A stretch of DNA of 64,000 nt. Origin: an uncultured Lentisphaerota bacterium. GTDB lineage: Bacteria; Verrucomicrobiota; Kiritimatiellia; CAIQIC01. Shown here in pieces: positions 3,339 through 62,130 of this stretch. A program made the position numbers and the translations under genes. The DNA is taken from NCBI GenBank assembly GCA_903889245.1, contig CAISWQ010000001.1, positions 18,860 through 82,859 of the forward strand, given 5' to 3'. Numbering within the stretch: position 1 is the stretch's first letter; each line of letters opens with the position of its first letter. A model generated the notes under the pieces. It saw only the letters and a list, made by a program, of their open reading frames with translations. It was not told the origin of the DNA and made no database searches.

Positions 3339-3450
3339 TTTCCAAGGCTTGGAAAAATCCCGGCCTGTTTTTCCAAGCCTTGGAAAAAGTTGGTGCAATT
3401 TTTTCCAACCCTTGGAAAAATGCCGCCGCCGGTTTCCAAGCCTTGGAAAA
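3339..3450. repeat. 31-bp-phased palindrome array A (4 copies)
   Basis: Four copies of the palindrome family TTTTCCAAGCCTTGGAAAA have cores centred at 3347, 3378, 3410 and 3441, a spacing of 31, 32 and 31 bp. The linkers are not conserved. The array starts one base after the DUF1080 stop and ends 16 bases before the next ATG, so it fills almost the whole gap between two co-directional genes. Confidence 0.95.
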
Positions 3451-3466
3451 CGGCAGGAAATGACTC

Positions 3467-4039
3467 ATGAAAGTTTTGGCGTTCAACGGCAGTCCGCGCA
3501 AGGACGGCAACACCGTCCGGCTCATCCAGCAGGTCTTTGCCGCACTGCAAAAGGAAAGCATCGCGACCGAGCTGGTGCAGGTGGGCGGCCAGCTCCTGCA
3601 CGGCTGCAAGGCGTGCTATTGGTGCCGGACGACGAAGAGCGGGACCTGCTCGCAGGGCGATGATCCGGTCAACGGCTGGATCGAGCAGATGCGCGCGGCC
3701 GATGGCCTCATCCTCGCCTCGCCGACCTACTTCGCGGATGTCACGCCGGAGCTCAAGGCGCTGATGGACCGCGCGGGCTTCGTAATGCGCGGCGAGCAGA
3801 ACCAGTTCCGGCGCAAGGTGGGCGCGGCGGTCGTTGCCGTCCGACGCGCGGGTGGCATCCACGTCTTCGATAGCATCAATCATTTCTTTCTGATCAATGA
3901 AATGCTCGTGGCGGGATCAAGTTATTGGAACCTTGGCTATGGCCGCGACAAGGGCGAGGTCGAAAAGGACGAGGAAGGGCTGCGGACGATGACCACGCTC
4001 GGCCAGAACATGGCGTGGCTGCTGAAGAAGACGCGGTGA
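3467..4039 (+). CDS. Flavodoxin-fold NADPH-dependent FMN reductase / iron-sulfur flavoprotein
   Basis: This 190-residue cytoplasmic protein starts MKVLAFNGSPRKDGNT, the FMN phosphate-binding loop of the NADPH-dependent FMN reductase and iron-sulfur flavoprotein family. Residues 48-62 hold closely spaced cysteines (GCKACYWC, then GTC) as seen in members that bind an Fe-S centre. SPTYFADVTPELKALMDR is the typical flavin-ring segment. Such proteins transfer electrons between NAD(P)H, flavin and an acceptor. The ribosome site AGGAAA lies 8 bases before ATG, directly after palindrome array A. The physiological partner is unknown. Confidence 0.85.
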   Translation: MKVLAFNGSPRKDGNTVRLIQQVFAALQKESIATELVQVGGQLLHGCKACYWCRTTKSGTCSQGDDPVNGWIEQMRAADGLILASPTYFADVTPELKALMDRAGFVMRGEQNQFRRKVGAAVVAVRRAGGIHVFDSINHFFLINEMLVAGSSYWNLGYGRDKGEVEKDEEGLRTMTTLGQNMAWLLKKTR

Positions 4040-4051
4040 AAAGGGTGAGTG

Positions 4052-4114
4052 CCTCGTGAAGTCACGCGGCTGACATCTGGTGATTTATGTAGGCCGGGTC
4101 ACCTGACCCGGCGG
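4052..4114. repeat. TCACGCGG / GTAGGCC composite inverted element
   Basis: A roughly 63-bp element made of GTGAAGTCACGCGGC followed about 33 bases later by TGTAGGCCGGGTCACC and its inverted partner GACCCGGC. The hairpin arms are near 4093-4099 and 4106-4112. A closely similar composite lies at 49654-49718, and a more symmetrical hairpin using the same TGTAGGCCGG word lies at 25050-25078. Confidence 0.75.
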
Positions 4115-4136
4115 AAAACGGAGAAAGGAACCGACA

Positions 4137-4781
4137 ATGCAGACGACAATCAAGAGGCTGGCGGGTGTGCTGGTGCTGGCGGCGGGTGTGGGCATGGCGC
4201 AGGAACTGGCCGATGTGAAATTGCCGGAGCCGAAGACGGAGGGCGGCAAGCCGCTGATGCAGGCGCTGAAGCAGCGGCAGTCCACGCGCGAGTACGGGAC
4301 GCAGGCGATCGCGCCGCAGATGCTTTCCGATCTGCTCTGGGCGGCGCATGGCATCAGCCGCGCGGAGAGCGGCAAGCGGACCGCGCCCTCGGCGAAGAAC
4401 TGGCAGGAGATGGAGGTCTATGTGCTCACGGCGGAGGGCGCCTACCTGCACGATGTGAAGGCGAACACGCTCAAAGCCGTCGCGAAGGGCGACCTGCGCA
4501 AGCTGACCGGCAAGCAGGAGTTCGTCCCGCTTGTGCCGGTGAATCTCGTCTATGTCGCGGACACGACGAAGATGCTGAAGGCGACGCCGGAGGAAAGCGC
4601 CTTCTACTCCGCGACCGACACCGCTTTCATCAGCCAGAACGTCTATCTCTTCTGCGCCTCGGAAGGCCTCGCGACCGTGGTGCGCATGCCCAGCGACAAG
4701 CCTGCGCTGGCCGCCGCCCTGAAGCTGCCCGACACCGCCAAGATCACGCTCGCCCAATCCATCGGCTGGCCGAAGAAATAA
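4137..4781 (+). CDS. Exported SagB-type nitroreductase-like protein
   Basis: This 214-residue protein has a signal peptide ending near residue 21 (VGMAQ). It continues with LMQALKQRQSTREYG, the FMN-binding start of the nitroreductase fold, and LLWAAHGISR and RTAPSAKNWQEMEVYVL, characteristic of SagB/ThcOx-like nitroreductases. The C-terminal FISQNVYLFCASEGLATVVR is the helix closing the FMN site. Family members use FMN for dehydrogenation or nitro reduction. An exported form is less usual, and its substrate is unknown. The ribosome site GAAAGGAAC precedes ATG. Confidence 0.82.
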   Translation: MQTTIKRLAGVLVLAAGVGMAQELADVKLPEPKTEGGKPLMQALKQRQSTREYGTQAIAPQMLSDLLWAAHGISRAESGKRTAPSAKNWQEMEVYVLTAEGAYLHDVKANTLKAVAKGDLRKLTGKQEFVPLVPVNLVYVADTTKMLKATPEESAFYSATDTAFISQNVYLFCASEGLATVVRMPSDKPALAAALKLPDTAKITLAQSIGWPKK

Positions 4782-5008
4782 CAGCGCTGACCTGCCCCCA
4801 GGATACTTGGGGAGGCAACGCAGGGTGGGGTGGAGAAACAAGGCGTGGCTGCACGGGCTGTTTTCTTGACCACCATCGCAGGTCGTGTTAGAGACGCCGC
4901 GCGTTGCGGCATGGAAGTCACCAAGGAGGAGCAGGCTGTGTGGCGTGGGTTTCATCAAGTCAGTGCGGTGTCGTCGTCTAGCGTGGTCTGGAAAGCGACA
5001 GAAGGGCT

Positions 5009-5596
5009 ATGAAAAAAAACTTGGTAGCGTCATTAAGTATCATCGGTTTGTTGGGCGTGGTGGGATGCGAAACCTCGTCAGGTCCCCGCATCTCTGGTTA
5101 TTCGACCAGCGAACAGGCGGTGACGGAGACCAACGCCACCACCACGACCACCCCGCTGGCCTCCAATCCCGCGGAACTTTGGCCGAACGTGTCCGCGCCA
5201 GATTTTCTGCAACACGGTCGCAGTGGCGAGGACTCCTACCGGAGCGCCAAGGTCAGCGCCGCCAACGCCGCCGGGGTGAACTGCCTGCGCGTGAACGCCA
5301 ACTACAGCTTGAGCGATGAGACCGCCATGCATCTGCTGGCCCTGGAGCATCCGAGCAAGCCCGGTTATTATCTGGACGCGGAGAACTGGTTTTTCATCTC
5401 CGAACGCCGTGGCGTTACCCGCTGGATTCATGATTTGGGGACCCCGAGCCGGTCGCAGGCGGACCGCTGGCTTTACCTCGTCAAATCCTCGAAATATGCC
5501 GGGCGGCTGCAATTGATGTGCAGCGGCGCCACCGCGTTGGATGTCTTGGCCCGCTTGAGCGCCAATCCCAATGGCGCGCCCGTGATCGTCTATTGA
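5009..5596 (+). CDS. Hypothetical lipoprotein
   Basis: This 195-residue protein has a lipoprotein signal peptide: MKKN, a hydrophobic stretch, then GVVGC with Cys20 as the lipid-modified residue. A Ser/Thr-rich linker follows (residues 22-50). The rest is a compact domain with no motif I recognise (TAMHLLALEHPSKPGYY, WIHDLGTPSRSQADRWLY). It probably sits in the outer or inner membrane facing the periplasm. AGAAGGG precedes the ATG. The 227-base gap before it shows no convincing gene, only a small CCCCA/TGGGG hairpin near 4797-4811. Confidence 0.7.
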   Translation: MKKNLVASLSIIGLLGVVGCETSSGPRISGYSTSEQAVTETNATTTTTPLASNPAELWPNVSAPDFLQHGRSGEDSYRSAKVSAANAAGVNCLRVNANYSLSDETAMHLLALEHPSKPGYYLDAENWFFISERRGVTRWIHDLGTPSRSQADRWLYLVKSSKYAGRLQLMCSGATALDVLARLSANPNGAPVIVY

Positions 5597-5714
5597 GTCG
5601 GCGCTTGCCCCGGCGCGCTGTGGCCCCGTGTTGTGCGGCCTGTCGCGGTGCGGCCTTGCTTTTCCGCCGCCGTTCCCTACACTTTCGCGCGTTTTTCTGA
5701 AAGCGAGCACGGCC

Positions 5715-8378
<2,664 letters not shown>

Positions 8379-8380
8379 TG

Positions 8381-8405
8381 TGGAGGGCCACGCTCCCTCG
8401 TGGCC
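8381..8405. repeat. GGAGGGCC short inverted element
   Basis: Immediately after the valS stop lies TGGAGGGCCACGCTCCC. The 7-base arm 8386-8392 (GGCCACG) pairs with 8399-8405, and an A-run follows about six bases later. A near-identical copy lies inside the start of a sialidase gene at 57925-57946. It could act as a weak terminator for valS, but the reuse points to a dispersed repeat. Confidence 0.6.
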
Positions 8406-8471
8406 GGCGCAAAAAAGTTTGAAGCTTGAGCCCCGTGGCGACGTATAGGGACTGATGAAAGGAAGAACATC

Positions 8472-8972: not shown

Positions 8973-9024
8973 TCTTCACGCCGGTCCTCCCGGAACATGG
9001 AGGGCGAGGCTTGCCGAACCGCTG

Positions 9025-9132
9025 CCAAGGATTGGAAAATAGAAACGCCACTTTTCCAGGCCTTGGAAATTTGCACGGGGCTTTTTCCAGGGCTCGGAAA
9101 AATATCGCCAGCATTTTCCAAGCCTTGGAAAA
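9025..9132. repeat. 31-bp-phased palindrome array B (4 copies)
   Basis: Cores are centred at 9030, 9061, 9092 and 9123, all three spacings exactly 31 bp. Core variants are CCAAGGATTGG, CCAGGCCTTGG, CCAGGGCTCGG and CCAAGCCTTGG, so the phase is better kept than the sequence. The array fills the gap between two convergent genes and ends three bases from the stop codon of the minus-strand gene. Confidence 0.95.
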
Positions 9133-9135
9133 CCA

Positions 9136-12100
9136 TCAGGGCGTGGGTTTGTGCCAGAGCGCTTCCCAGTAGCGGCGGTCGAGGTCGTAGACGTTGACCT
9201 TATCCTTGGTGGGATCGAACTCGGGCGGGAGGACGCCGTAGCGTTTCATCTCGCGCAGGTAGGCGAGGCGCGGGGTGAAGTTCGGCATGTTGAAGCGCGT
9301 CATGCTGTCGAGCATCGCCTTGCCGGCTTGCATCGCCGCGAGCAACTTCTGGTAGTCGGGATCGCTGGTGTCCTTGAACACCGCCGGGCAGCTTTTGGCG
9401 GTCTTGGGGTCGGCGGGCGGCGCGGTCTCCGCCCAGCCGCCGGCGGACTTGGCGAGCGGGGCGAGCAGCAGCAGGGATTTTTCCGGCCGGCTCAAGTTGA
9501 AGACGATGTGCCGGCTGAACCGGATGCGCGGATCGCCGAGGTTCGGCATCCAGAACGAGATGTTGCCCTCGTCGGAGAGCGAGCGCGGCAACTGCATGCC
9601 CTTTTGGCCATGGCAGCTCGCGCAGCGGCGGTCAAACACGCCGGGCATCGCGGCCACCGCGGCGTGCTTCTCGTCGGAGCGGTCGAGGTGGTTCTGCGAG
9701 TAGCCGCCGATCATGCCGCAGCCGAGCGCGGCGTAGGTGCCGGGCCACGTCGCGGCGGAGTTGATCCAGCAGCGGACGAGTTCCTTCTCCGCGGCGCTCA
9801 TCTGCACGTCATGGTGCGTCGGCTCCAGCTTCTGCATCAGCGGGCTGGCGCTATCGCCGAGCGTGCGCGGCGCGTAGTTGCTCTTCGGCTGGTTGCGGCC
9901 GTCGGCGACCTGCTTGTGCAGCGTGAGCATGATGTAGCTGTGCGAGTACAGCGGGCCCGCGTCGCCGGCGAGCAGCATGTGGCCGCTGGGCTGGTCGGGG
10001 CTGTGGCAGCGGACGCAGTGCTTGTCCCAGAGCGGCTGGATGTGGCGCGTGTAGTCAATCACGTCGGGGATGCCGGGCAGCGGCGCGATGCGGCTGGGCG
10101 CGCGGCGCATCGCCAGCGGCGTGTTGGCGCCGGCGGGAAGCTTGTCCATCGTCGCCGTGCGCGGCTCGTGGCAGCCGATGCAACCGGTGCGCTCGCCGGG
10201 CATGACGGTGCAGAAGCTCTGCATGCGCTTGACCGAGCGGCCCTGCGCATCCAGCGCGACGAAGAAGCAGGCGCGGTTGGCGGGCATTTCGAAAAAGGCG
10301 GAGCCATCGTCCTCGACCGGCACGGTGCCGAGCAGGCGTTCGAGCGTGAAGCTGCCGCCGTAGGTCAGCGGCTCCATGCCGCCGGTATAGTTGATCGGCT
10401 TGGGCAGTGATTCAAGGATCAGCAGCTTCTTGATGTCGCCGCGCTTGATGCCTGCCATGTTGCGGCCCTGATAGACATCCATGCACGCGAGCACGCCGGT
10501 CGTCTGCTCCGGCTTGGCGCGCGCGGGAATCTGCATCTCGCGCGCGTGCGGAAGCAGCGGGCGCGGCTCGTGCATGGTCACGTCGCTCCACTCGCGGGGC
10601 AGCGCATAGACCTGGCGGTATTTGCCGGCGGCGTCATAGAGCCGGATTTCGCGGTCCACCGCCACGAGGAACGCGTTGGTCGAGAGCGGGAACGGGTCGC
10701 GCGCGATCGGGTCGCGGGTGATGTTGCGCAGCATCGCCAGCTCGTCGGGGCCCTTGCGGACGTTGAGCGTGGCGAGGTAGCCGATGTGCTCGCGCCCGCC
10801 GTGGCCGGGCGAATTGATCAGCGCGATGCTGTCGGAGTTCGGGATCGGCTTGGCGTCCAGATAGACGCCGCCGGGATGCTGGTTGCCAAAGTAGATCATC
10901 TGGCTCGTGCCGTCGGGATACATCGTCCACAGGTGGTGATAGTGGACCTGCGAGCGATCCACGTATTCCCAGCGCTGATAGGCGATGCGGCCATCGGGCA
11001 GCACCCACGGCGTGTTATCGTGTTCGAGGTTGGCGGAAAGCGCCGTCACGTTTTTGCCGTCGGCGTCGCAGCGGTGGACCGTGGCCACGTGCGTCAGCCA
11101 GCATTGGACCCAGCGCTTGCAGCGGCTGGAGACGAAGACGATGCCGCCATCCGGCAGCCAGCTCGGTTCGAGGTCGTCATACTGCCCGTCGGTCAACTGC
11201 TTCAGGCCGGACCCGTCGCTGTTGATCGTGTAGAGGTGGAACTGGTCGGCGCCGCCCTTGCGCCAGGCAAAGACGATGGCGCGGCCGTCGTAATGCACCG
11301 CCGGGTCGCGCACGTTGCCGGTGGGGTCGTTGATGAGCAACTGCGTCGCGCCCGTGTCGAGGTCGAGCTTCACCAGCCGCCCGCCGACGCCGTAGCACTT
11401 GTGCGCGTCCTCCGGCGCGTAGTAGCCGAAGTTCGCGTACCAGTGGCCCTCGGCGATCTGCGTGCGCGTCGCAAAGACGAGCTCGTTCACGCCCAGCGCA
11501 TCCAGCGCCTGGGCCGCGAGCGCGTGATCCTCCGGCCGCTCCGCGGTCTTGGGCATTTCCAGCCACGGCGCGGTGAGCGCGAGCGCATGGCCCATCGGCA
11601 GCGCCGCCTTCGCCTGCCAGATGACCTTCGACTTCGTGCGCGACGGCGCGACCGCGAACAGCGGCACCTTGCCGCCCGCGTTGCAGACCAGCACGCGGCC
11701 ATAGTCCAGAGTTTGGAAACCGGCGCACCAACGGATGCCCAGCTCTGGAAAATCCTTCGCGCTGAACTGCCACTGCACATGGTTGGCGAGGTTGATCGCC
11801 TGCATCCCGCCCTGGCCGCTGATGATGATCAGGCCATCCGGCTGGACGGCGACGGAGAACGGCCGCCACGGTGTCTTGAGCTCCCGCGCCAGCTTGCCTT
11901 CGGCGTCATACTCGCGCACCGCCTGCGCGTTTTCCTCCGCCACGATGAAGTGCCCGTTCGGCATCGCGCGCGCGTGCCGCAGCGCGCCATGGCCCGGCGC
12001 GTTCAGGATGCGGAGGGTCTTCTCCAGCGCGCCCTTCGCGTTCACGAGCAGCAGCGCGCCCTGGCTCGCGTTGCCGACCAGCGTGCGGCCGTCGAGCATC

Positions 12101-12438
12101 CGCTGGCACGTCCACACCTGGCCGGTGGTCTGGAACTGGAAGACGACCTGCTTCTGCGGCGTCACCTCCAGCACCCCGGAGGGATTATCGTGGCGCTTGG
12201 GATCGTACTTGTTGTTGTAGCAGAAGAGCACGTTGCCGTTCGGCAGCGCTTGGACATCGCGCGCCATCTCCGCGGGAAACTCCCACGCCGGCTGGCCCTG
12301 GTCGCCATAGCGGATGATCTTGCGCGCCTCCTCCGCCGCATAATAGACCGGCGGGAACAGCGCCTTGGTTGTCGTCGCGGCCTGCACCGCCAGCACGCCG
12401 CCCGCCGCTGCCACCAGCCATGCTTTCATCATATTCAT
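9136..12438 (-). CDS. HzsA-like secreted protein with PD40/WD40-type propeller and c-type heme motifs
   Basis: This 1100-residue exported protein starts at ATG 12438, followed by a signal peptide (AWLVAAAGGVLAVQA). An upstream in-frame extension is only translated palindrome array and was rejected. Residues about 35-330 form PQQ/NHL-like blades and residues about 340-640 TolB-like PD40 blades (DGSGLKQLTDGQYDDLEPSW, LPDGGIVFVSSR). The following segment has the HzsA middle-domain type. Heme-attachment sites CxxCH occur near residues 750 (CIGCH), 807 (CVRCH) and 937 (CASCH). The architecture is that of HzsA-related proteins, named after the hydrazine synthase alpha subunit, which are widespread in Planctomycetes and Verrucomicrobia outside anammox bacteria. 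A role in periplasmic redox chemistry is inferred, and the substrate is unknown. Confidence 0.85.
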   Translation of the reverse strand: MNMMKAWLVAAAGGVLAVQAATTTKALFPPVYYAAEEARKIIRYGDQGQPAWEFPAEMARDVQALPNGNVLFCYNNKYDPKRHDNPSGVLEVTPQKQVVFQFQTTGQVWTCQRMLDGRTLVGNASQGALLLVNAKGALEKTLRILNAPGHGALRHARAMPNGHFIVAEENAQAVREYDAEGKLARELKTPWRPFSVAVQPDGLIIISGQGGMQAINLANHVQWQFSAKDFPELGIRWCAGFQTLDYGRVLVCNAGGKVPLFAVAPSRTKSKVIWQAKAALPMGHALALTAPWLEMPKTAERPEDHALAAQALDALGVNELVFATRTQIAEGHWYANFGYYAPEDAHKCYGVGGRLVKLDLDTGATQLLINDPTGNVRDPAVHYDGRAIVFAWRKGGADQFHLYTINSDGSGLKQLTDGQYDDLEPSWLPDGGIVFVSSRCKRWVQCWLTHVATVHRCDADGKNVTALSANLEHDNTPWVLPDGRIAYQRWEYVDRSQVHYHHLWTMYPDGTSQMIYFGNQHPGGVYLDAKPIPNSDSIALINSPGHGGREHIGYLATLNVRKGPDELAMLRNITRDPIARDPFPLSTNAFLVAVDREIRLYDAAGKYRQVYALPREWSDVTMHEPRPLLPHAREMQIPARAKPEQTTGVLACMDVYQGRNMAGIKRGDIKKLLILESLPKPINYTGGMEPLTYGGSFTLERLLGTVPVEDDGSAFFEMPANRACFFVALDAQGRSVKRMQSFCTVMPGERTGCIGCHEPRTATMDKLPAGANTPLAMRRAPSRIAPLPGIPDVIDYTRHIQPLWDKHCVRCHSPDQPSGHMLLAGDAGPLYSHSYIMLTLHKQVADGRNQPKSNYAPRTLGDSASPLMQKLEPTHHDVQMSAAEKELVRCWINSAATWPGTYAALGCGMIGGYSQNHLDRSDEKHAAVAAMPGVFDRRCASCHGQKGMQLPRSLSDEGNISFWMPNLGDPRIRFSRHIVFNLSRPEKSLLLLAPLAKSAGGWAETAPPADPKTAKSCPAVFKDTSDPDYQKLLAAMQAGKAMLDSMTRFNMPNFTPRLAYLREMKRYGVLPPEFDPTKDKVNVYDLDRRYWEALWHKPTP

Positions 12439-12503
12439 TTGATTGCCTCGCACACTGCCGGAAAAAACGAAAGCCACGCGCAAAAATTGCAGAACCACGG
12501 GGA

Positions 12504-12553
12504 TTTTCCAAGCCTTGGAAAACGCGCGGCCTTTTTTCCCAAGCCTTGGAAAA
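12504..12553. repeat. 31-bp-phased palindrome array C (2 copies)
   Basis: Two full copies are centred at 12513 and 12544, 31 bp apart. They lie between the divergent starts of the HzsA-like gene (12438, minus) and prfC (12601, plus), so neither copy is in a position to terminate an upstream gene on either strand. Confidence 0.95.
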
Positions 12554-12600
12554 TCCTGGCGTTGCACGGGAGCCAAATCCTGCTACATTGCGCGCCCTTT

Positions 12601-14217
<1,617 letters not shown>

Positions 14218-17095: not shown

Positions 17096-17097
17096 CG

Positions 17098-18054: not shown

Positions 18055-18151
18055 GCTGAAAGTCCTTCGCCGCGCTTCCGGCGCGGGCGGCGGATTGTGG
18101 CCAGCGCCGCGCGCGTAGTCAAACCATCTCAACGCCTGTCGGCAGAAAAAC

Positions 18152-18200
18152 TTTCCAAGCCTTGGGAAAAAGCAGGCCGCATTTTCCAAGCCCTGGAAAA
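18152..18200. repeat. 31-bp-phased palindrome array D (2 copies)
   Basis: Cores are centred at 18160 (CCAAGCCTTGG) and 18191 (CCAAGCCCTGG), 31 bp apart, between ileS and the PfkB kinase gene, both on the minus strand. The second copy ends six bases from the ileS stop. Confidence 0.95.
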
Positions 18201-18206: not shown

Positions 18207-21338
<3,132 letters not shown>

Positions 21339-21468
21339 GGCGCTTTCCTTGCCGCTGCGCGGCCGCGCAACGTAGCCAGACTGCTCTTCGGAAAGCAAGC
21401 GGATAGCTGCGGACATTCGTCAGGAAAGGTCTTCCTGCCTCCGCGCATCAGCAGCGGCGCGCATAGCC

Positions 21469-24972: not shown

Positions 24973-25022
24973 TTTTCCAAGGCTTGGAAACCCACGCCGG
25001 AATTTTTCCAAGCCTTGGAAAA
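24973..25022. repeat. 31-bp-phased palindrome array E (2 copies)
   Basis: Cores are centred at 24982 and 25013, 31 bp apart, in the divergent gap between the double-FAD gene (start 24921, minus) and the small membrane protein gene (start 25172, plus). It is followed 28 bases later by the 25050 hairpin. Confidence 0.95.
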
Positions 25023-29317: not shown

Positions 29318-29367
29318 TTTTCCAAGCATGGGAAACCGGAACCCCACTTTTTCCAAGCCTTGGAAAA
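29318..29367. repeat. 31-bp-phased palindrome array F (2 copies)
   Basis: Cores are centred at 29327 (diverged CCAAGCATGGG) and 29358 (CCAAGCCTTGG), 31 bp apart, between the Nudix gene and thiH on the minus strand. The array runs directly into the 15-bp-unit repeat. Confidence 0.92.
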
Positions 29368-29500
29368 GTGGACAGAAAAACAAAGGACAGAAAAATGGTT
29401 GGCAGAAAAATGAGGGCCAGTTGGGGTGATGTTGCGGGGCTTCTTTTTCTTCCGGTTGTTTTCGGCTCTTGTTTTTCTGTCTCCGCTTTTTCTGTCCACT
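29367..29500. repeat. CAGAAAAA 15-bp-unit repeat with 14-bp terminal inverted ends
   Basis: CAGAAAAA recurs at 29373, 29388 and 29403, a 15-base period. 29367-29380 (AGTGGACAGAAAAA) is the exact reverse complement of 29487-29500, which abuts the thiH stop. A second reversed unit lies at 29472-29481. The 106 bases between the ends include a T/C-rich tract and no gene. Confidence 0.8.
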
Positions 29501-31650: not shown

Positions 31651-31682
31651 AAATAAAAAGCCCCGATTTTCACCGGGGCTTG
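31651..31682 (-). terminator. Riboswitch expression-platform terminator
   Basis: On the minus strand AAGCCCCGGTGAAAATCGGG leads into GCTTTTTATTT. A seven-base stem (AGCCCCG with CGGGGCT) and a U-run form an intrinsic terminator between the TPP aptamer and thiS, so thiamine diphosphate probably stops transcription before the operon. Confidence 0.88.
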
Positions 31683-31684
31683 GC

Positions 31685-31768
31685 TCATGTCGTCTCCCTT
31701 CGCCGGCATGATCCGGATCAGGTTCAACGGGTATGATCTCAGTCCCGCTGGCGGGACACCCCGGTCGC
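31685..31768 (-). ncRNA. TPP riboswitch (THI element)
   Basis: The minus strand carries the conserved THI-box elements in order: GGGGTG, then CTGAGATCATACCC, then GTTGAACCTGATCCGGAT, then ATGCCGGCGAAGGGAG. The thi-box CTGAGA and the ACCTGATC core are intact. It lies directly upstream of the thiS-thiG-thiH operon, with a terminator as the expression platform. It senses thiamine diphosphate and switches the operon off. Confidence 0.95.
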
Positions 31769-31846
31769 GGCGCAACGTAGGGCAGAAAGCCGCGCGCGTC
31801 AACCGCGCAGGCGGGAAAGAAGAACACCGCGCATCGAAAGATGAGA

Positions 31847-33494: not shown

Positions 33495-33550
33495 GCGCGC
33501 CCGATTCCAATCCTTGGAAACGGGCGCGCTTGTTTTTCCAAGGCTTGGAC
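33495..33550. repeat. 31-bp-phased palindrome array G (2 copies) nested in a terminator
   Basis: Cores are centred at 33512 (CCAATCCTTGG) and 33543 (CCAAGGCTTGG), 31 bp apart. The first copy is wrapped by perfectly pairing GC arms (33495-33503 with 33521-33529, GCGCGCCCG). The stem is followed by TTGTTTTT, whose T-run is the left arm of the second copy. It sits between the convergent ends of fabI and the TrpB2-like gene and should terminate fabI. Confidence 0.92.
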
Positions 33551-33681
33551 GACCCTGCGCCATGCAACACGATCCCACTCGCAGCAGCGTGGCAGGAGAA
33601 TCCATTGGTGTTACAGAGAAAGACACCCTCAACCAAGAACTCCTTGGAAGTCACGCTGCGCGCAGAACTACAGGTCCGAGA

Positions 33682-37721: not shown

Positions 37722-37740
37722 TTTTCCAAGCCTTGGAAAA
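37722..37740. repeat. Palindrome locus H (single full copy)
   Basis: One perfect TTTTCCAAGCCTTGGAAAA is centred at 37731. No second copy lies 31 bp away on either side. A half-like TTTTTCCAAAAACTTCGG lies 35-45 bp downstream. The position is the divergent gap between the rhamnosidase-like gene and the aldolase gene. Confidence 0.9.
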
Positions 37741-45766: not shown

Positions 45767-45878
45767 TTTTCCAGGGATTGGAAAAATTTCCGGCGGAATT
45801 TCCAGACATTGGAAAAGTTGGGGCAGAAATTTTCCAGGGCTTGGAAAATTTCGGGTTTTCTTTTCCAAGCCTTGGAAA
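45767..45878. repeat. 31-bp-phased palindrome array I (4 copies)
   Basis: Cores are centred at 45776, 45807, 45839 and 45870 (spacings 31, 32, 31). Variants CCAGGGATTGG, CCAGACATTGG and CCAGGGCTTGG show the outer T and A tracts and CC/GG pairs are kept better than the centre. It lies between the sialidase fusion and the sulfatase gene, same strand. Confidence 0.95.
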
Positions 45879-45910
45879 GGGATAACACCGGCGGAGCAGA
45901 AAGGAACATC

Positions 45911-47398
45911 ATGAACACGCGAAGCTTGGTTTTGGCCGGCGCGCTGGCGGCGCTGCTGGCGGCGGGCGCCCGGGCTGCGGACGGCCTGCCGGACACCTCG
46001 AAGATGAACGTCCTCCTGATTGACATCGAGGACTGCAATGCGGGTGTCTGGGGTTGCTACGGCAACGAAATCTGCAAAACGCCGAACTTGGACCGCTTCG
46101 CCGCGGGCGCGGTGCGGTTCGAGTCCGCCTATTGTCAGGCGTTCTGCTGCAACCCGACGCGCACCTCGTTCCTGACCGGCTTGCGGCCGCCGAGTACGCG
46201 CGTGCTCTCCAACGGCGACGTGATGAACAAGCACCTGCCCGCCGGCGTGCTCACGCTGCCGGAGATGCTCAAGAGTCAGGGTTTCTACACCGCTGATATC
46301 GGCAAGCTGTTCCACACGGTGGATTATGCCGAGCGGCAGATGGCGACGTTCGACCGCATCGAGCTGTATGACAAGCCCGCGGGTTGGAAGGGGCCGGGGC
46401 CGATCCTGACCTTCCCGCCGGTGGCGCGCGCCCGCGCCGCCAATCCGCCGCCTCCGAAGAGCAAGGGCAAGGAATTCGCCACGTGGCGGCGCAAGCAGTC
46501 CGACCGCTACGGCGACTCCGGCATTCCGGCGGAGCAGGATGGCGACTACCGCAAGGCGCAGGTCGCCAGCGCACTGCTCAAGGAATTCGCCAAGAGCAAA
46601 AAGCAATTTTTTCTCGCCGTGGCGCAGTCGCGGCCCCACACGCCGCTGATCGCGCCGAAGAAATACATCGAGATGTATGACCCAGCCAAGATCCCCGAGC
46701 CGCCCGCGCCGCTGGCGAGCCTGAAAAAATTCCCCTATATGAAGCGCGCCACCGGCGGCAACCCGGACATCTTCACCCAGCAGCAGCCGACGCCGCAGCA
46801 GGTGCGCGAGGCCATCGCGGCCTACTACGCCTGCGTCAGCTTCGTGGATGACAACGTGGGCATGATCCTCGACACGCTCGCGCAGGAGGGGCTCGACAAA
46901 AACACGATCGTCATCTTCCTGGGCGATCACGGTTTCCATCTCGGCGACCACCAGTTCTGGTCGAAGTACTCGATGCTGGAGGCGACGCGGCGCGTGGTGT
47001 TCATCGTGCGCGTGCCCGGCGCGCCGGCCAACGGCCAGGCGTGCCGCGAGTTCGTCGAGTTCGTGGACATCGTGCCGACGCTCGCCGACCTGCTGAAGTT
47101 CGACGCGAAGAACGCGCTCGAAGGCACGAGCTTCGCGCCGCTGCTGGTGAACGCCGCGCGGCCGTGGAAGCGGGCCGTGTTCATGACCGATGGCAATGGC
47201 GATAACGTCGTCCGCACGCGGCAGTACAGTTATCTGGAATTCAAGTCGGGCAAGGCCGATGTGCCCACCGCACTCTATGATTTACAGAGGGATCCGTGGG
47301 AGACGGTGAACGTTGCCGATGACCCAGCCTATGCCGCGGCGCGCAAGGAGCTGGCCGAGCTGCTGCACGGCGGCTGGAAGGCCGCGCTGCCCAAGTAA
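45911..47398 (+). CDS. Iduronate-2-sulfatase-like sulfatase, secreted
   Basis: This 495-residue exported protein has AAGGAAC before ATG and a signal peptide to about residue 23. The sulfatase signature is Cys80-N-P-T-R within FCCNPTRTSFLTGLRPPS. Cys80 is the residue converted to formylglycine. GDHGFHLGDHQFWSKYSMLEATRRV is the C-terminal metal and substrate loop of the iduronate-2-sulfatase group. The first metal motif reads LIDIEDCN instead of the usual D-D pair, so one ligand is Glu. It likely removes sulfate from sulfated glycans. It lies just after the sialidase-fusion operon. Confidence 0.94.
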   Translation: MNTRSLVLAGALAALLAAGARAADGLPDTSKMNVLLIDIEDCNAGVWGCYGNEICKTPNLDRFAAGAVRFESAYCQAFCCNPTRTSFLTGLRPPSTRVLSNGDVMNKHLPAGVLTLPEMLKSQGFYTADIGKLFHTVDYAERQMATFDRIELYDKPAGWKGPGPILTFPPVARARAANPPPPKSKGKEFATWRRKQSDRYGDSGIPAEQDGDYRKAQVASALLKEFAKSKKQFFLAVAQSRPHTPLIAPKKYIEMYDPAKIPEPPAPLASLKKFPYMKRATGGNPDIFTQQQPTPQQVREAIAAYYACVSFVDDNVGMILDTLAQEGLDKNTIVIFLGDHGFHLGDHQFWSKYSMLEATRRVVFIVRVPGAPANGQACREFVEFVDIVPTLADLLKFDAKNALEGTSFAPLLVNAARPWKRAVFMTDGNGDNVVRTRQYSYLEFKSGKADVPTALYDLQRDPWETVNVADDPAYAAARKELAELLHGGWKAALPK

Positions 47399-49725: not shown

Positions 49726-49733
49726 CATCTAAC

Positions 49734-53189: not shown

Positions 53190-53198
53190 GGCTGGGCC

Positions 53199-53249
53199 TT
53201 TCCAAGGATTGGAAACTGGGAGCGGCACTTTTTCCAAGCCTTGGAAAAA
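53199..53249. repeat. 31-bp-phased palindrome array J (2 clear copies, one decayed)
   Basis: Cores are centred at 53207 (CCAAGGATTGG) and 53239 (CCAAGCCTTGG), 32 bp apart, in a convergent gap. A weak copy in phase is centred at 53303, about 64 bp further: TTCTTCCCGGTCGTTGAAAA fits the consensus at about 15 of 21 positions and lies inside the last codons of the GH5 gene. A T-run in phase lies at 53261. Confidence 0.88.
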
Positions 53250-53288
53250 TTGGGTCTCGGTTTTTTGGGGGCCCCGGGGAATCGGCAG

Positions 53289-54875: not shown

Positions 54876-54964
54876 GGCGTCCCTCTAATCAAAACAGCCG
54901 ATGCTGTCAATCGCCGCCTGTTGCGCGTAGAGGGGCGACGGCAAGGCAGACGGCGGTGCCGGTG

Positions 54965-55074
54965 TTCCAAGCCTTGGAAAAGGCACCGATACTTTTTCCA
55001 GGGCTTGGAAAATCTGGGCGTGGAACTTTCCAAGGCTTGGAAAAAACGGTGAAATATTTTCCAAGCCTTGGAAA
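54965..55074. repeat. 31-bp-phased palindrome array K (4 copies)
   Basis: Cores are centred at 54972, 55003, 55035 and 55066 (31, 32, 31 bp apart), in the divergent gap between the GH5 gene (start 54875, minus) and the HExxH gene (start 55117, plus). It shares the 31-32-31 pattern with arrays A and I. Confidence 0.95.
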
Positions 55075-55116
55075 CGGATGCTTGAAGCGGGTGGGGCGGG
55101 CCGATAGAAACGCACC

Positions 55117-57899: not shown

Positions 57900-60064
57900 A
57901 AACTGAACTTATCGCACCATCGGCTGGAGGGCCGCGCTCCGTCGCCTGCGAGTTGAAATCACTCTGGAGGGCCTTTGGTATCTTGCTGCTGCCGATGGCG
58001 TCGTTCGCTGCCGTGCAAAGCGAGTTCATCTTCGAGAAGGCTCCGTTCCCCAGTTGCCACGCCTCAACGATTGTGGAGGCCAAGGATGGCGGACTGGTCG
58101 CCGCGTGGTTCGGCGGGACGCACGAGCGGCATCCGGACGTGGGTATCTGGGTGGCGCGCCGCGAGGGAAACACGTGGACTGCGCCGGTCGAGGTGGCCAA
58201 CGGCGTCCAGGCCGATGGCACGCGGCAGCCGTGCTGGAATCCGGTTTTGTTCCAACCCAAGGTCGGGGCGTTGATGTTGTTCTATAAAGTCGGTCCCTCG
58301 CCGAGCCAATGGTGGGGGATGCTGCGCACCTCGGACGATGGCGGGAAAACCTGGAGCGCGGCGCGGCGTTTGCCGGAGGGCATCATCGGCCCGATTAAGA
58401 ACAAGCCGGTGCAACTGGCCAATGGTGACATTCTGTGCGGCGTGAGTTCAGAAGATCACGGCTGGCGCGTCCACTTCGAGCGCAGCAGTGATGGCGGCCA
58501 GACGTGGCGGGCGACGCCGCCGGTCAACGACGGCAAGACCATCGGCGCGATCCAGCCGAGCATTCTCTTTCAGGGCGGCGACTGCTTGCAGGCCATCGGC
58601 CGCACGAAACAGTCGCACGTGTTTTCGATCTGGTCGGAGGATGGCGGCCGGACGTGGGGGCCGATGACGCTGCTCGACCTGCCGAATCCGAACTCCGGCA
58701 CCGACGCGCTCACGCTGAAGGATGGCCGGCATCTGCTCGTCTATAATCCGACGGCGAAAGGGCGCTCGCCGCTGGCGGTGGCCCTCTCGCGCGACGGCAA
58801 AACGTGGCAGCAGGTGATCGAGTTGGAGAACGAGCCGAAGGCGGAGTTCAGCTATCCCGCCTGCATTCAGGCGCGCGATGGCCGCGTTCACATCACCTAC
58901 ACCTGGAAGCGCCAGCGCATCAAACACGCCGTGCTCGATCCCGCGCAGTTGGAGGTGACGCGCAGCCCGATCACGAACGGAGCCGAGTGGAAGAACGACA
59001 AACCGGTGGCGCTGCCGGGCGTGACGAAGCCGAAGGGCGAGAGCGTGCTGATCTACCAGCCGACAACCGAGTGGACCTATTCGCATCACCAAAGCCTGAC
59101 GTTTTTCAAGGGTCGCTTCTACGCCATCTGGTCCAATGGCCGAAAAGATGAGGATGCGCCCGGCCAGCGCGTGCTGCTGGCGAGTTCGGCAGACTTCAGG
59201 AATTGGACCACGCCCAAGCCGCTCGTGGATTCGGTGACGGAGCAAGGCGTCGAGCGCGTGTTGACCGCCGCGGGTTTCCATCAGCACGAGGGCACGCTCG
59301 TCGCCTACTTCGGCAACTATGGGCCGCAGAAGGAGACAACGCGCTTGCAGTTCGTGACGACCACCGATGGCGAACAGTGGAGCGCGCCGCGCGACGCCGG
59401 TGCGGCGATCAACCCCAACCACGGTCCGCAGGCGACCAAGAGCGGCCGGCTGATCATCAGCGGCAACATTTCATTTCCATGGAGCGATGACCCGACCGGG
59501 CTCGCCGGCTGGCACATGACCGGCATCTATCCGGCGAGCATGGCCGCGACGATCAAGGACGATCCGGCCTCGTTCTGGGAGGTGGCGAAGAAACAGAACT
59601 GGAACACCGGCCTGTGCGAGGGCTCGTTCTATCAGACCGATGACGGCGTCCTGCACATGCTGCTGCGCAACGCCGCCAAACAAAACACCCGCCGCCTCTG
59701 GCTGACCGAGAGCCGCGACAACGGTGCGACCTGGGGCGAGCCGGTCGAGACCAACTTCAGCGACACCAATTCCAAGTTCCACTGCGGCCGTCTGCCAGAT
59801 GGCCGTTTCTATGTGATCAATAATCCCATCGGCGGCGGTCGCACACCGCTGGTGCTCTCGCTCTCGCGCGATGGCGTGAAGTTCGACAAGCATTTCATCC
59901 TCGGCGACACTCACTACGAGCGCCGCTGCGCCGGTCAGTATAAGGGCGGCGAGTATGGCTATCCGCACACGCTGCTGCATGAGGGTTTCCTCTACACCAT
60001 CGTCTCGCGCCAGAAGGAAGCCGTCGAAGTCCTCCGCGTCACCCTCGCCGAGCTGAAGGAGTGA
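57896..60064 (+). CDS. Exo-alpha-sialidase-like (BNR) protein
   Basis: This 722-residue protein starts at ATG 57896, overlapping the previous stop. The N-terminus is unusual: residues 5-20 (LIAPSAGGPRSVACEL) are encoded by a dispersed GGAGGGCC repeat, before the hydrophobic signal core (AFGILLLPMASFAAV). Asp boxes SDDGGKTW, SSDGGQTW, SEDGGRTW, SRDGKTW and SRDNGATW mark two six-bladed sialidase-type propellers (about 45-370 and 385-722). Sequences like HASTIVEAKDGGLVAAWFGGTHE are widespread in Verrucomicrobia and Planctomycetes sialidase-like proteins, whose activity is seldom tested. Confidence 0.9.
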   Translation: MKTELIAPSAGGPRSVACELKSLWRAFGILLLPMASFAAVQSEFIFEKAPFPSCHASTIVEAKDGGLVAAWFGGTHERHPDVGIWVARREGNTWTAPVEVANGVQADGTRQPCWNPVLFQPKVGALMLFYKVGPSPSQWWGMLRTSDDGGKTWSAARRLPEGIIGPIKNKPVQLANGDILCGVSSEDHGWRVHFERSSDGGQTWRATPPVNDGKTIGAIQPSILFQGGDCLQAIGRTKQSHVFSIWSEDGGRTWGPMTLLDLPNPNSGTDALTLKDGRHLLVYNPTAKGRSPLAVALSRDGKTWQQVIELENEPKAEFSYPACIQARDGRVHITYTWKRQRIKHAVLDPAQLEVTRSPITNGAEWKNDKPVALPGVTKPKGESVLIYQPTTEWTYSHHQSLTFFKGRFYAIWSNGRKDEDAPGQRVLLASSADFRNWTTPKPLVDSVTEQGVERVLTAAGFHQHEGTLVAYFGNYGPQKETTRLQFVTTTDGEQWSAPRDAGAAINPNHGPQATKSGRLIISGNISFPWSDDPTGLAGWHMTGIYPASMAATIKDDPASFWEVAKKQNWNTGLCEGSFYQTDDGVLHMLLRNAAKQNTRRLWLTESRDNGATWGEPVETNFSDTNSKFHCGRLPDGRFYVINNPIGGGRTPLVLSLSRDGVKFDKHFILGDTHYERRCAGQYKGGEYGYPHTLLHEGFLYTIVSRQKEAVEVLRVTLAELKE
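57925..57946. repeat. GGAGGGCC element inside the sialidase signal region
   Basis: TGGAGGGCCGCGCTCCGTCG is a near-copy of the intergenic element at 8381. It is in frame and separates the start codon from the hydrophobic core of the signal peptide. Confidence 0.75.
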
Positions 60065-60071
60065 AGTAGCT

Positions 60072-61460
60072 ATGCCAAGCATAAATCGCCGATCGGCGCT
60101 CAAGGGTTTGTTTACCGGAGCCGTGGGCGGCGCCGTGATGCCGCGCACGCTGGCGGCCGATATGGAGAAAGCGCCGGCGGGCAAGGCGGAGGTGTGGCCG
60201 GCGGTGGATGTACTGGTGGTGGGCGGCGGGCCGGCGGGCATCGGTGCAGCGCTGATGGCGGCGCGGGCAGGGTGCAAGACGCTGCTCGTGGAACGCTACG
60301 GCCGGCTCGGCGGCATGGCCGTACAGGCGCTCGTCGGCCCGCTGATGGGCAGCGTCCGCAGCAAGCTGGTGGACGACATCGTGGAGCGCATCGGCGGACG
60401 CCGCGTGGATTATGAGTTCGTGGATTTGAAATATGCCGAACTGCTCCTGCAAGCTGGTTGCCAGGTGTTACTGCACGCGTGGTGCGCCGCGCCCTTGCTC
60501 GAGGGCGGACGCGTGGGCGGCGTACGGCTGGTGACGAAGCAAGGGCTGATTGACGTACCGGCGAAGGTCACGGTGGATGCCACGGGTGATGGCGATGTGG
60601 CGTTCGGCGCGGGCGCGGAGTTCGATCAGGGTCGCGGCGCGGGGCCGAACTGGAAAGCCGATGGCCTCGTGCAGCCGATGAGCATCATGTTTCGTGTCGC
60701 CGGTGTGAACCACAAGGAGAGCATGGATGCCAAGGGCGGACGCGGCGCCTATCGTTTTCCGGACGGCCGCACGTGGAATCAGCTCTGCAAGGACGCGAAT
60801 GCGGCGGGCGAGCTGCCTTCCACGGTGGGCATGGTGCGGACCTACACCTCGCGCCGCGACGATGAGCGCGTCATCAACGCCACGCAGATCAACCGCGTGG
60901 ACGGCACGAAGGTCAGGGACCTGACGCAGGCCGAGTTGGAAGGCCGGCGGCAGGCGCAGCGGGTGCTCGAATTCCTCAAGCAGCGCGCGCCGGGCTTTCA
61001 GAACGCCTACATCAACAACATGCCGGCGAGCATCGGCGTGCGCGAGACGCGGCGGATTCGTGGCGTGGCCACGCTGACGGTGGACGACCTGTTTGCCGGC
61101 CGCCAGTGGCCCGACGCGGTGGTGCGTGGCGCGAACTTCCCGATAGACATCCACAATCCCGATGGTATCGGGCAGGTGCAGGGCGTTTCGCAAGAGCACC
61201 CGCTGGGCAAGGATCCGAAGGTCAAGCCCTATGACATTCCCTACGGCTGTCTCGTGCCGCGGAGTGTGAACGGGCTGCTTATCGCCGGCCGCTGCATCAG
61301 CGGCACGCACGAGGCCATGGCGTCCTATCGCGTGCAGGTGATCGCGCTGGCGACCGGTCTGGCCGCCGGCGTCGCCGCCGCCGAGGCGGTCAAGCACGGT
61401 GTTGAGCCGCGCGCCGTGAATGTTGCCCAGATTCAGCGCAGCGTGTTCGCCGCGCCGTGA
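60072..61460 (+). CDS. Second exported FAD-dependent oxidoreductase
   Basis: This 462-residue protein has a Tat-like signal (INRRSALKGLFTGAVGGAVM). The FAD motif is VLVVGGGPAGIGAALMAARAGCKTLLVER. VTVDATGDGDVAFGAGAEF and SVNGLLIAGRCISGTHEAMASYR are the family signatures, as in the gene two places upstream. It starts 8 bases after the sialidase stop, so HExxH protein, FAD enzyme, sialidase and FAD enzyme form one four-gene operon. The two FAD proteins are clearly paralogous types but differ in the middle, suggesting different substrates. Confidence 0.9.
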   Translation: MPSINRRSALKGLFTGAVGGAVMPRTLAADMEKAPAGKAEVWPAVDVLVVGGGPAGIGAALMAARAGCKTLLVERYGRLGGMAVQALVGPLMGSVRSKLVDDIVERIGGRRVDYEFVDLKYAELLLQAGCQVLLHAWCAAPLLEGGRVGGVRLVTKQGLIDVPAKVTVDATGDGDVAFGAGAEFDQGRGAGPNWKADGLVQPMSIMFRVAGVNHKESMDAKGGRGAYRFPDGRTWNQLCKDANAAGELPSTVGMVRTYTSRRDDERVINATQINRVDGTKVRDLTQAELEGRRQAQRVLEFLKQRAPGFQNAYINNMPASIGVRETRRIRGVATLTVDDLFAGRQWPDAVVRGANFPIDIHNPDGIGQVQGVSQEHPLGKDPKVKPYDIPYGCLVPRSVNGLLIAGRCISGTHEAMASYRVQVIALATGLAAGVAAAEAVKHGVEPRAVNVAQIQRSVFAAP

Positions 61461-61477
61461 GCATCTGTGACGAGCTC

Positions 61478-61525
61478 TTTCCATATATTGGAAGTGAACG
61501 GCTGGTTTTTCCAAGGCTAGGAAAA
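61478..61525. repeat. 30-bp-phased palindrome pair L (diverged)
   Basis: Diverged cores CCATATATTGG (centre 61486) and CCAAGGCTAGG (centre 61516) are 30 bp apart, after the FAD-oxidoreductase stop. It is the most divergent pair and the only one with spacing 30. Confidence 0.82.
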
Positions 61526-61650
61526 GATGCGGCCCACCACCAGACGTAAAGCTGAACTGGCGGGAGGGCGGGGACGAATTTGGCCTTGCGCCGGGGCATC
61601 TGCCTGCTATCGTCCCACCGTTGATGAGCGCTGTAACTGGGAGAGTTCGC

Positions 61651-62052
61651 ATGAAAACGACGACGCGTTGGATGATGGTGGCGGTGCTGGCGGCGAGTAT
61701 GGTGATGTTGACGTTGCCCGGCTTGGCGGCACAGCGGCATCGGGTGAAGCCTCTGCCGCCGAATGAGCACAAGCCCAGTGCCTATTGGGAACTGGAAAGC
61801 TTCGACGCTTCCGCCGGCACCATCTCCCTGCAAAAGAGCGACAGTTCCTCAAACCTGACCCTCAAGGTGACCAGCGTCACCAAGGTGCTCGTCGAAGACA
61901 AGCCCGGTAAACTCGACGAACTGCAAAAGGGGCAGAAGGTCGTCTTCAGCGCGTCCGGCGGAAGTTGCACGTTCCTCGACGCCGCCAAGCCCGACCCCAA
62001 GGACAAACCGAAGGGCAAGGACGAGAAGAAGACGACGAAGAAGAAAAACTGA
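61651..62052 (+). CDS. Small exported protein with lysine-rich tail, hypothetical
   Basis: This 133-residue protein starts at ATG 61651 with GGGAGAG upstream. An in-frame TTG upstream was rejected. A signal peptide (MMVAVLAASMVMLTLPGLAA) is followed by a short beta-rich domain (WELESFDASAGTISLQKSDSSSNLTLKVTSVTKVLVEDKPGKLDELQKGQKVVFSASGG) that resembles small OB-type beta-barrels, and a Lys/Asp-rich tail (DPKDKPKGKDEKKTTKKKN). I do not recognise a family. Confidence 0.72.
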   Translation: MKTTTRWMMVAVLAASMVMLTLPGLAAQRHRVKPLPPNEHKPSAYWELESFDASAGTISLQKSDSSSNLTLKVTSVTKVLVEDKPGKLDELQKGQKVVFSASGGSCTFLDAAKPDPKDKPKGKDEKKTTKKKN

Positions 62053-62072
62053 ACAGCGCTGCGCGCTGTCGC

Positions 62073-62130
62073 ACGCCCGCGTTTTCCAAGGCTTGGAAAC
62101 GCGGGCGTTGTTTTTTCCAAGCCTGGGAAC
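62073..62130. repeat. 31-bp-phased palindrome array M (2 copies) nested in a terminator
   Basis: Cores are centred at 62091 (CCAAGGCTTGG) and 62122 (CCAAGCCTGGG), 31 bp apart. The first copy is wrapped by GC arms ACGCCCGCG (62073-62081) and CGCGGGCGT (62100-62108), followed by TGTTTTTT, the left arm of copy two. It lies in the convergent gap between the small exported protein and the DUF1287 gene. Confidence 0.92.

What the first reader, a model, noticed from the sequence alone, without database searches (positions are those of the whole stretch)
3339..62130. Family of intergenic palindromes locked to a 31-bp phase, in groups of two or four
Thirteen intergenic loci carry 33 clear copies of a palindrome (consensus TTTTCCAAGCCTTGGAAAA, core CCAAGCCTTGG). 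Adjacent copies are spaced centre to centre by 31 bp (15 of 20 intervals), 32 (4) or 30 (1). The spacing is conserved while linkers and half the cores vary (CCAGGGCTCGG, CCAGACATTGG), so position is under stronger constraint than sequence. 31 bp is three helical turns, as expected if dimeric proteins bind side by side on one face of the DNA. I know of no described element with this phase.
Basis: seen in the sequence. Interest (0 to 1): 0.93.

Follow-up and report, generated by a model that had tools for sequence, protein, structure and literature searches.

The report
Genome-wide helix-phased palindrome code
Many bacteria of one class (by their named relatives the Kiritimatiellia) carry a short palindrome written hundreds to thousands of times into their DNA, in some species even inside genes, and in several species with neighbouring copies spaced by whole turns of the double helix; it is likely the docking site of a still unknown protein and may work as a tag by which cells recognise their own DNA during uptake, which would be the first such tag known outside two families of Proteobacteria.

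Summary
The genome (class Kiritimatiellia by its named relatives) holds 2643 copies (up to 3 mismatches; reversed control 15). In 453 kb, 133 of 139 neighbour spacings up to 70 bp are 31 or 32. The phase is helical: in a distant relative spacings fall at 22, 31, 41-42, 52-53, 63, 83, 105, 116 bp (best period 10.4-10.5), inside genes as between them. There the in-gene sites arise by base substitution; linkers are mostly unrelated and several site-bearing genomes lack RAYT transposases, so this is no transposed repeat. Another family carries the palindrome unphased. In the home genus arrays are spread more evenly than random intergenic positions (5 of 9 pieces). Of 62 site-rich genomes 40 carry a long ComEC uptake channel; the congener without ComEC has decayed sites, but this link is correlative and other ComEC absences may be assembly gaps. 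Best reading: sites for a dimeric protein assembling on one DNA face (about 0.8), likely used for self-DNA recognition during uptake (about 0.45); nucleoid organisation is the main rival (about 0.3). The binder is unidentified.

The parts
3338..3450 (.). array of 4 palindromes (31, 32, 31 bp), between two + genes, 16 bp before the FMN-reductase gene 3467-4039
   Evidence: a decayed array lies at the orthologous place in congener G115
9021..9132 (.). array of 4 palindromes (31, 31, 31 bp), convergent gene ends
   Evidence: no array at the same place in G115
12504..12553 (.). pair, 31 bp, upstream of the + gene ending at 14217 (its true start taken as later than the 12487 of my gene finder); position and spacing kept in G062 and, decayed, in G115 while linkers differ
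18151..18200 (.). pair, 31 bp, 6 bp from the stop of the class I tRNA synthetase gene 18207-21398 (-); pair also present in G062 (32 bp)
24973..25022 (.). pair, 31 bp, divergent intergenic
29318..29367 (.). pair, 31 bp, between two - genes
33503..33552 (.). pair, 31 bp, convergent gene ends; the first palindrome sits between the arms of a GC-rich inverted repeat followed by a T run (terminator-like, read from the sequence)
37722..37740 (.). single palindrome, divergent intergenic
45767..45879 (.). array of 4 (31, 32, 31 bp) before the sulfatase gene 45926-47398
53198..53248 (.). pair, 32 bp, convergent gene ends
54963..55075 (.). array of 4 (31, 32, 31 bp), divergent intergenic
61477..61525 (.). 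pair, 30 bp, between two + genes
62082..62131 (.). pair, 31 bp, convergent gene ends; the first palindrome is inside a 14-pair stem followed by T6 (terminator-like 62073-62108)

Best explanation
The palindrome TTTTCCAA-N3-TTGGAAAA is likely the binding site of a still unidentified dimeric protein whose copies would sit side by side on one face of the DNA, and it likely serves as a self-DNA tag that biases natural DNA uptake. Shown: thousands of copies in this genome; spacing by whole helical turns (31-32 bp in this genus; any whole number of turns in G079, inside genes too); origin by base substitution of in-gene sites in G079; even spread of arrays along five of nine chromosome pieces of the home genus; dialects of the central three bases between species; decay of the motif in the congener where no ComEC was found. 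Inferred: a protein dimer, same-face assembly, and uptake as the force. Proposed mechanism (untested): a dimeric receptor of the uptake machinery binds the palindrome, two or more in-phase sites bind more strongly, fragments that carry them enter and recombine more often, and the bias spreads and keeps the sites wherever sequence is free to change.
For: Helical code: G079 neighbour spacings 18-130 bp n=84, best period 10.4 bp, R=0.82 at 10.5; in-gene pairs n=37 R=0.87, intergenic pairs n=39 R=0.86; without the 31-33 bp class, 36-130 bp n=42 R=0.78, best period 10.5; all three reading frames used, 86/67/66. Not inserted: of the 219 in-gene sites of G079, 65 are spanned by protein alignments to homologues and 56 of these show no gap within 3 residues; most linkers are unrelated. 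Spread: arrays more even than random intergenic positions, own C1 p=0.0135, C16 p=0.0003, G062 three contigs p<=0.002; even spacing and origin by point mutation are reported for known uptake sequences (PMC1939737, passages). Conservation: arrays at 67 orthologous gene sides of own and G062, both 10, own only 6, G062 only 14, neither 37, odds ratio 4.4, p=0.017. Competence link: genomes with a ComEC frame of at least 750 aa (n=67) have median log2 site enrichment 2.60 against 0.40 for at most 610 aa (n=65), p=4e-10; by family 14 against 28, p=5e-5. Family f1, all 6 genomes held: ComEC found in the three densest (2643, 1318, 1481 sites), not found in G115 (824), G353 (52), G358 (39); exact-match share 27% own, 29% G062, 8% G115.
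Against: No uptake experiment and no receptor. ComEC absence in G353 is probably an assembly gap (its contig ends inside the neighbouring TPR gene) and G358 is 82% complete, so G115 is the only fair loss case, and there the neighbour TPR gene has no close match either, which a missing stretch could also explain. G115 and G353 still pass my richness cut-off. ComEC length follows deep phylogeny; families f9 (short) and f5 (intermediate) are rich, f7, f12 and f70 are long and poor or weak; G047 and G084 have ComEC but near-background sites. Known uptake motifs are short (9-12 nt) and the USS is not palindromic (PMC12616744, passages); multi-site binding is argued against for them and their evenness has also been read as a sign of compaction (PMC1939737, passages). 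Prediction that conserved genes hold more sites: weak in G032 (0.98 against 0.77 per kb, p=0.03), absent in G079 (0.51 against 0.46, p=0.56). In G032 sites are clustered rather than even (CV 1.1-1.4); own C18, C3, C13, C19 are not significantly even, and in G062 C66 arrays nearly fill the gaps (40 arrays, 41 gaps), which makes that null weak. In the own genome groups are mostly intergenic (75 of 94).
Confidence: 0.45

Rival explanations
1. Chromosome architecture: a dimeric nucleoid-associated protein binds the palindromes cooperatively on one face and folds or bridges the chromosome; uptake plays no part.
For: Whole-turn phasing and arrays are what cooperative dsDNA binders need; arrays occur in all intergenic classes, tandem 48 (117 gaps of 60 bp or more), convergent 14 (30), divergent 13 (39), beside unrelated genes, and evenly spread in five of nine pieces.
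Against: No candidate protein found; sites are at background in whole families and differ about 100-fold within genus g12, odd for a structural system; species dialects in the core.
Confidence: 0.3
2. A HIP1-like highly iterated palindrome linked to DNA methylation, repair or recombination rather than uptake.
For: Hyperabundant palindrome in coding and non-coding DNA, patchy in one class, as for HIP1 in cyanobacteria (PMC4390886, passages).
Against: Methyltransferase co-occurrence was not tested; whole-turn spacing is not mentioned in the HIP1 passages seen ('spacing' occurs 0 times).
Confidence: 0.12
3. A global regulator of the Lrp/AsnC family binds the sites: its dimers sit two or three turns apart and DNA wraps round an octamer of four dimers, giving groups of two or four.
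For: Published spacing of two or three turns (PMC2995911, passages); 131 of 155 class genomes have the RAM domain, and of the 20 listed genomes without it one (G329) is site-rich (4 more without it were not listed).
Against: The same family is present in many site-poor genomes. In own and G062, which share the same sites, its presumed recognition helix is 62% identical while the rest of the protein is 90%; residues 1-58 are acidic, 7 K/R against 10 D/E. Sites sit inside genes and at convergent ends.
Confidence: 0.08
4. REP/REPIN-like mobile repeats spread by a RAYT transposase.
For: Palindromic, often doublets, stop-proximal in tandem gaps (mean relative position 0.36, n=45, p=0.03), turnover between species, slight inner/outer asymmetry; some linkers are more alike than shuffles (own 31-bp linkers with 9 or more of 12 matches: 43 comparisons against 11 expected; stronger in CAIVKH).
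Against: Y1_Tnp not found in G148, G291, G293, G345, which have sites; most linkers and flanks not copied; in-gene sites arise by substitution; helical phase.
Confidence: 0.05

Closest known systems
DNA uptake sequences of Neisseriaceae (DUS) and Pasteurellaceae (USS)
   Same: Hundreds to thousands of copies in genes and between them, thought to arise by point mutation, reported as evenly spaced, with dialects; inverted pairs at terminators; in Simonsiella 1294 overlapping DUS form dyad-symmetric units (PMC3630211, PMC1939737, passages)
   Different: 17-19 bp palindrome instead of 9-12 nt, spaced by whole helical turns, another phylum; uptake function and receptor unknown
HIP1 of cyanobacteria
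   Same: Highly iterated palindrome, patchy across one group (PMC4390886, passages)
   Different: 8 bp GCGATCGC with embedded methyltransferase sites; no helical phasing mentioned in the passages seen
Lrp/AsnC-family operator arrays
   Same: Sites two or three turns apart on one face (PMC2995911, passages)
   Different: Known at regulated promoters; here thousands of sites, in genes as well
ComK boxes of Bacillus
   Same: Binding cooperativity follows the 10.5-bp helical period (PMC8170675, passages)
   Different: A few competence promoters only (the three studied there)
REP/REPIN repeats with RAYT
   Same: Intergenic palindromes, often in pairs (recalled; listings only)
   Different: No RAYT in several site-bearing genomes; mostly not copied; phased; in genes in some species

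Membership tests
DNA uptake sequence (DUS/USS) | Strong genome-wide over-representation | tested here: met
   2643 against 15 in the reversed control
DNA uptake sequence (DUS/USS) | Present in coding and non-coding DNA, gained by point mutation | tested here: met
   Coding and non-coding in G079 and G032, substitution origin shown in G079; in the own genome 75 of 94 groups are intergenic
DNA uptake sequence (DUS/USS) | Even spacing along the chromosome | tested here: inconclusive
   Met in own C1, C16 and three G062 contigs, not significant in four other own pieces, not met in G032
DNA uptake sequence (DUS/USS) | Tied to competence genes | tested here: inconclusive
   ComEC length and presence correlate, with exceptions and assembly gaps; DprA does not discriminate
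DNA uptake sequence (DUS/USS) | Enhances DNA uptake through a receptor | not testable with these tools
   needs an experiment
REP/REPIN with RAYT | Y1 (RAYT) transposase in the genome | tested here: not met
   not found in G148, G291, G293, G345, which have sites; most other class genomes do have a Y1 transposase (133 of 155)
REP/REPIN with RAYT | Copies spread as units | tested here: not met
   most linkers and flanks unrelated, with a small excess of similar linkers
Lrp/AsnC operator | Cognate regulator co-occurs and has a conserved DNA-reading helix | tested here: not met
   family present also in site-poor genomes; helix less conserved than the rest
Lrp/AsnC operator | Sites two or three turns apart | tested here: met
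   22, 31, 32 bp
HIP1-type palindrome | Hyperabundant palindrome across one class | tested here: met
HIP1-type palindrome | Internal methyltransferase recognition site | not tested
   no methylome; methyltransferases not searched

The most novel reading that the evidence does not exclude
Kiritimatiellia have evolved a third, independent self-DNA recognition code for natural transformation, in which a dimeric uptake receptor reads palindromes set on one face of the helix, so that a helical-phase code is written over protein-coding sequence genome-wide.
Probability: 0.4. Interest if true: 0.95.

Novelty: new variant of a known kind. Interest (0 to 1): 0.86.

Why it matters
A 2025 paper still names Neisseriaceae and Pasteurellaceae as the only families known to tell their own DNA from foreign DNA by a sequence motif at uptake (PMC12616744, passage seen). 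A palindromic, helix-phased motif in another phylum would be a new solution to that problem, would give a direct handle on natural transformation in a barely cultured class, and would be a rare case of a DNA-geometry code maintained on top of protein-coding sequence. If it is a nucleoid code instead, it would be a sequence-specific architectural system of unusual regularity. Either way the phase itself is measurable and the hypotheses are separable by experiment.

Tried and rejected
Transposed repeat (REP/RAYT): rejected by missing Y1 transposase in four site-bearing genomes, mostly unrelated linkers and substitution origin. Terminators: rejected as the general role, since arrays occupy divergent and tandem gaps as well as convergent ones and in one orthologous pair a GC hairpin plus T run stands directly before the array in own and without an array in G062; two of 13 window loci (33503, 62082) do sit inside terminator-like stems. 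Promoter regulator: rejected, arrays are as common at convergent ends and beside unrelated genes; in a clustering of array-flanking genes the top family (sulfatases) was next to arrays in 3 of 4 species, the next three families in 2 species each, and by eye none of the 25 listed looked like a DNA-binding regulator. RNA hairpins: do not explain helical phase. Lrp/AsnC as binder: considered seriously, then disfavoured. DprA co-occurrence: uninformative. Ori/ter bias in G079: none evident in 26 samples, though two neighbouring samples hold no site. Conserved neighbour of ComEC: a TPR protein, no DNA-binding domain found. Literature: no paper in the open library holds the 15-mers TTCCAAGCCTTGGAA, TTCCAAGGCTTGGAA, TTCCAATGATTGGAA, TTCCAATCATTGGAA; the four papers holding Kiritimatiell- and palindrom- and the listings did not show it by title and abstract. 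One paper I recalled (10.1038/ismej.2016.84) is not held, so a description there cannot be excluded. My gene finder is home-made and miscalls some starts; its first version put one window gene on the wrong strand, so in-gene counts are approximate. The 103 groups include some chance singles; 9 weak singles were dropped before the context count of 94.
Full report
1. The observation. The whole genome (5.26 Mb, 125 contigs) has 701 exact copies of TTTCCAAGNCTTGGAAA (reversed control 0) and 2643 with up to three mismatches (control 15). In 453.3 kb read base by base, 242 sites pass the matrix threshold; of 139 neighbour spacings up to 70 bp, 77 are 31 and 56 are 32, and 26, 27, 30, 33, 39 and 63 occur once each. 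Group sizes are 1:22, 2:47, 3:13, 4:18, 5:3, so pairs lead and fours are frequent, but threes occur. The central base is C or G in 98%.

2. Where it lives. Equal contig lengths tie G062 to bin DP16D_bin.41 and G087 to the Kiritimatiellae bin RGIG6649, hence class Kiritimatiellia. Of 288 genomes of the phylum 17 hold the exact motif, 16 of them in the own class, own genome included. In 155 class genomes counts run from 0 to 2978. Species have dialects of the core with constant arms: AAGSCTT (own, G062), AATSATT (CAIVKH, RZZM), AACGATT (SKLK), and spacing dialects: 31/32 own, 32 in G062 (84 of 97 intervals of 29-33 bp) and CAIVKH, 22/30/31 in a rumen species (those loci were picked by a 31/32-bp pattern, so only the extra intervals are unbiased).

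3. The phase is helical. In G079 (family f5, one 3.88-Mb contig; 520 kb sampled, 322 sites, reversed control 48) neighbour spacings cluster at 21-22, 31-32, 40-43, 52-53, 63, 82-83, 93-95, 104-105, 116, 124-126 bp; best period 10.4 bp, R=0.82 at 10.5 bp, n=84. Leaving out 31-33 bp, 36-130 bp still gives R=0.78, n=42, p=9e-12, best period 10.5. The signal fades beyond 130 bp (R=0.45, n=26) and is not significant at 300-1000 bp (R=0.23, n=57, p=0.055). Against this, G032 of family f9 (444 sites in 480 kb, control 38) shows no phase (R=0.08, n=68) and G157 has too few pairs to tell (n=12, p=0.09). So the palindrome is broader than the phase.

4. Inside genes. In G079 219 of 322 sites and in G032 344 of 444 lie inside called genes, in all three frames. 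In-gene neighbours in G079 are phased as strongly as intergenic ones (R=0.87, n=37; 0.86, n=39; mixed pairs R=0.65, n=8). Of the 219 in-gene sites 65 are covered by protein alignments to homologues, and 56 of these have no gap within three residues, so these sites are written by substitution. The home genus differs: of 94 groups counted for context 75 are intergenic, 17 fall in called genes (several of them wrong start calls, judged by eye) and 2 at piece ends.

5. Mostly not copied. Linkers of 77 pairs at 31 bp and 56 at 32 bp resemble each other little more than column shuffles, with a small excess at the top (9 or more of 12 matches: 43 comparisons against 11; 9 or more of 13: 23 against 12); the excess is stronger in CAIVKH and RZZM. 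Masked flanks give few cross-matches. Within-array linkers are slightly alike in own (0.36 against 0.33, p=0.015), and in SKLK and RZZM some arrays look tandem-duplicated. The Y1 transposase of REP systems is not found in G148, G291, G293 and G345, which carry sites, though 133 of 155 genomes have one.

6. Conservation and turnover. On 67 gene sides of 34 orthologue pairs between own and G062, arrays are on both in 10, own only 6, G062 only 14, neither 37 (odds ratio 4.4, p=0.017). Kept arrays keep position and spacing while linkers diverge, for example 12504 in three species. In the home genus arrays are more even along the chromosome than random intergenic picks in five of nine pieces: C1 CV 0.52 against 0.88, p=0.0135; C16 0.48 against 0.84, p=0.0003; three G062 contigs p<=0.002 (in C66 the arrays nearly fill the gaps, so that null is weak); C18, C3, C13, C19 not significant.

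7. Who reads it? No binder was identified. Lrp/AsnC fits the geometry (two or three turns, PMC2995911 passages), and 131 of 155 genomes have it, but its recognition helix changes faster than the rest between two species with the same sites (62% against 90%) and its first 58 residues are acidic. Only two DNA-uptake genes were tested. DprA is near universal (145 of 155). ComEC (147 of 155) shows a pattern: frames of at least 750 aa (n=67) go with median log2 enrichment 2.60, frames up to 610 aa (n=65) with 0.40; nine are intermediate (median 3.97), six had no listed length (2.38), eight have none (0.77). By my cut-off (50 or more sites and four times the control) 62 genomes are rich: 40 long, 10 short, 7 intermediate, 3 without listed length, 2 without ComEC. 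Those two are G115 and G353. In family f1 I guessed before that G358 would lack ComEC, and it did, while G359 with 1481 sites has a full one; the guess was noted only afterwards. However, G353's contig stops inside the gene next to ComEC and G358 is 82% complete, so only G115 stands as a probable loss, and it has no close match to the neighbour either. Its sites are decayed: exact share 8% against 27% and 29%.

8. Reading. The anatomy says dsDNA-binding sites of a dimer, read on one face (about 0.8). For the role, an uptake tag explains hyperabundance in and out of genes, substitution origin, even spread, dialects, turnover, decay and the ComEC trend, features also reported for DUS/USS (PMC3630211, PMC1939737, PMC12616744; passages seen), including dyad-symmetric DUS in Simonsiella and DUS pairs in terminators, echoed here at 33503 and 62082. 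Against it stand the palindrome length, phased multi-site design, clustering in G032, the weak core-gene signal and the correlative nature of the ComEC link. Nucleoid architecture is nearly as good. I file it as a member of neither: it works like an uptake code or a nucleoid code, and membership is unproven.

Noticed in passing
window 31678-31773 (-): TPP riboswitch, 67.5 bits against a gathering score of 54.3; in G062 a palindrome pair lies upstream of the orthologous gene, near the same riboswitch-like sequence.
   Followed up: no
window 29367-29430 and own C16 58190-58300: Short repeats of the type GGACAGAAAAA / TTTTTCTGTCC beside arrays, a possible second repeat family.
   Followed up: no
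window 9136-12438 (-): Large protein with hydrazine synthase alpha middle domain, WD40-like and cytochrome c matches.
   Followed up: no
L332 6447-7448, L333 3145-4248, L334 6400-7407, L335 2840-3943: TPR protein conserved next to ComEC, its 3' end overlapping ComEC's in the three f1 genomes read (own, G062, G359); no close match in G115, where ComEC is not found either.
   Followed up: partly
L263 10587-10636: A viral contig from IMG/VR that looks Mu-like by eye carries one 31-bp pair directly after a stop codon.
   Followed up: partly
doublets in G062 and own: Paired palindromes are slightly asymmetric: inner A-tract stronger than outer T-tract, centre more often G in the first and C in the second, linker middle GC-rich.
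   Followed up: no
class-wide: 131 of 155 class genomes have one to three RAM-domain matches; each of the 20 loci read holds one full-length Lrp/AsnC-like protein.
   Followed up: partly
L180 338-509: In RZZM an array lies in an open frame and reads as repeated FSNHWK/FQSLEI-like peptides; such arrays may seed odd annotated proteins.
   Followed up: no
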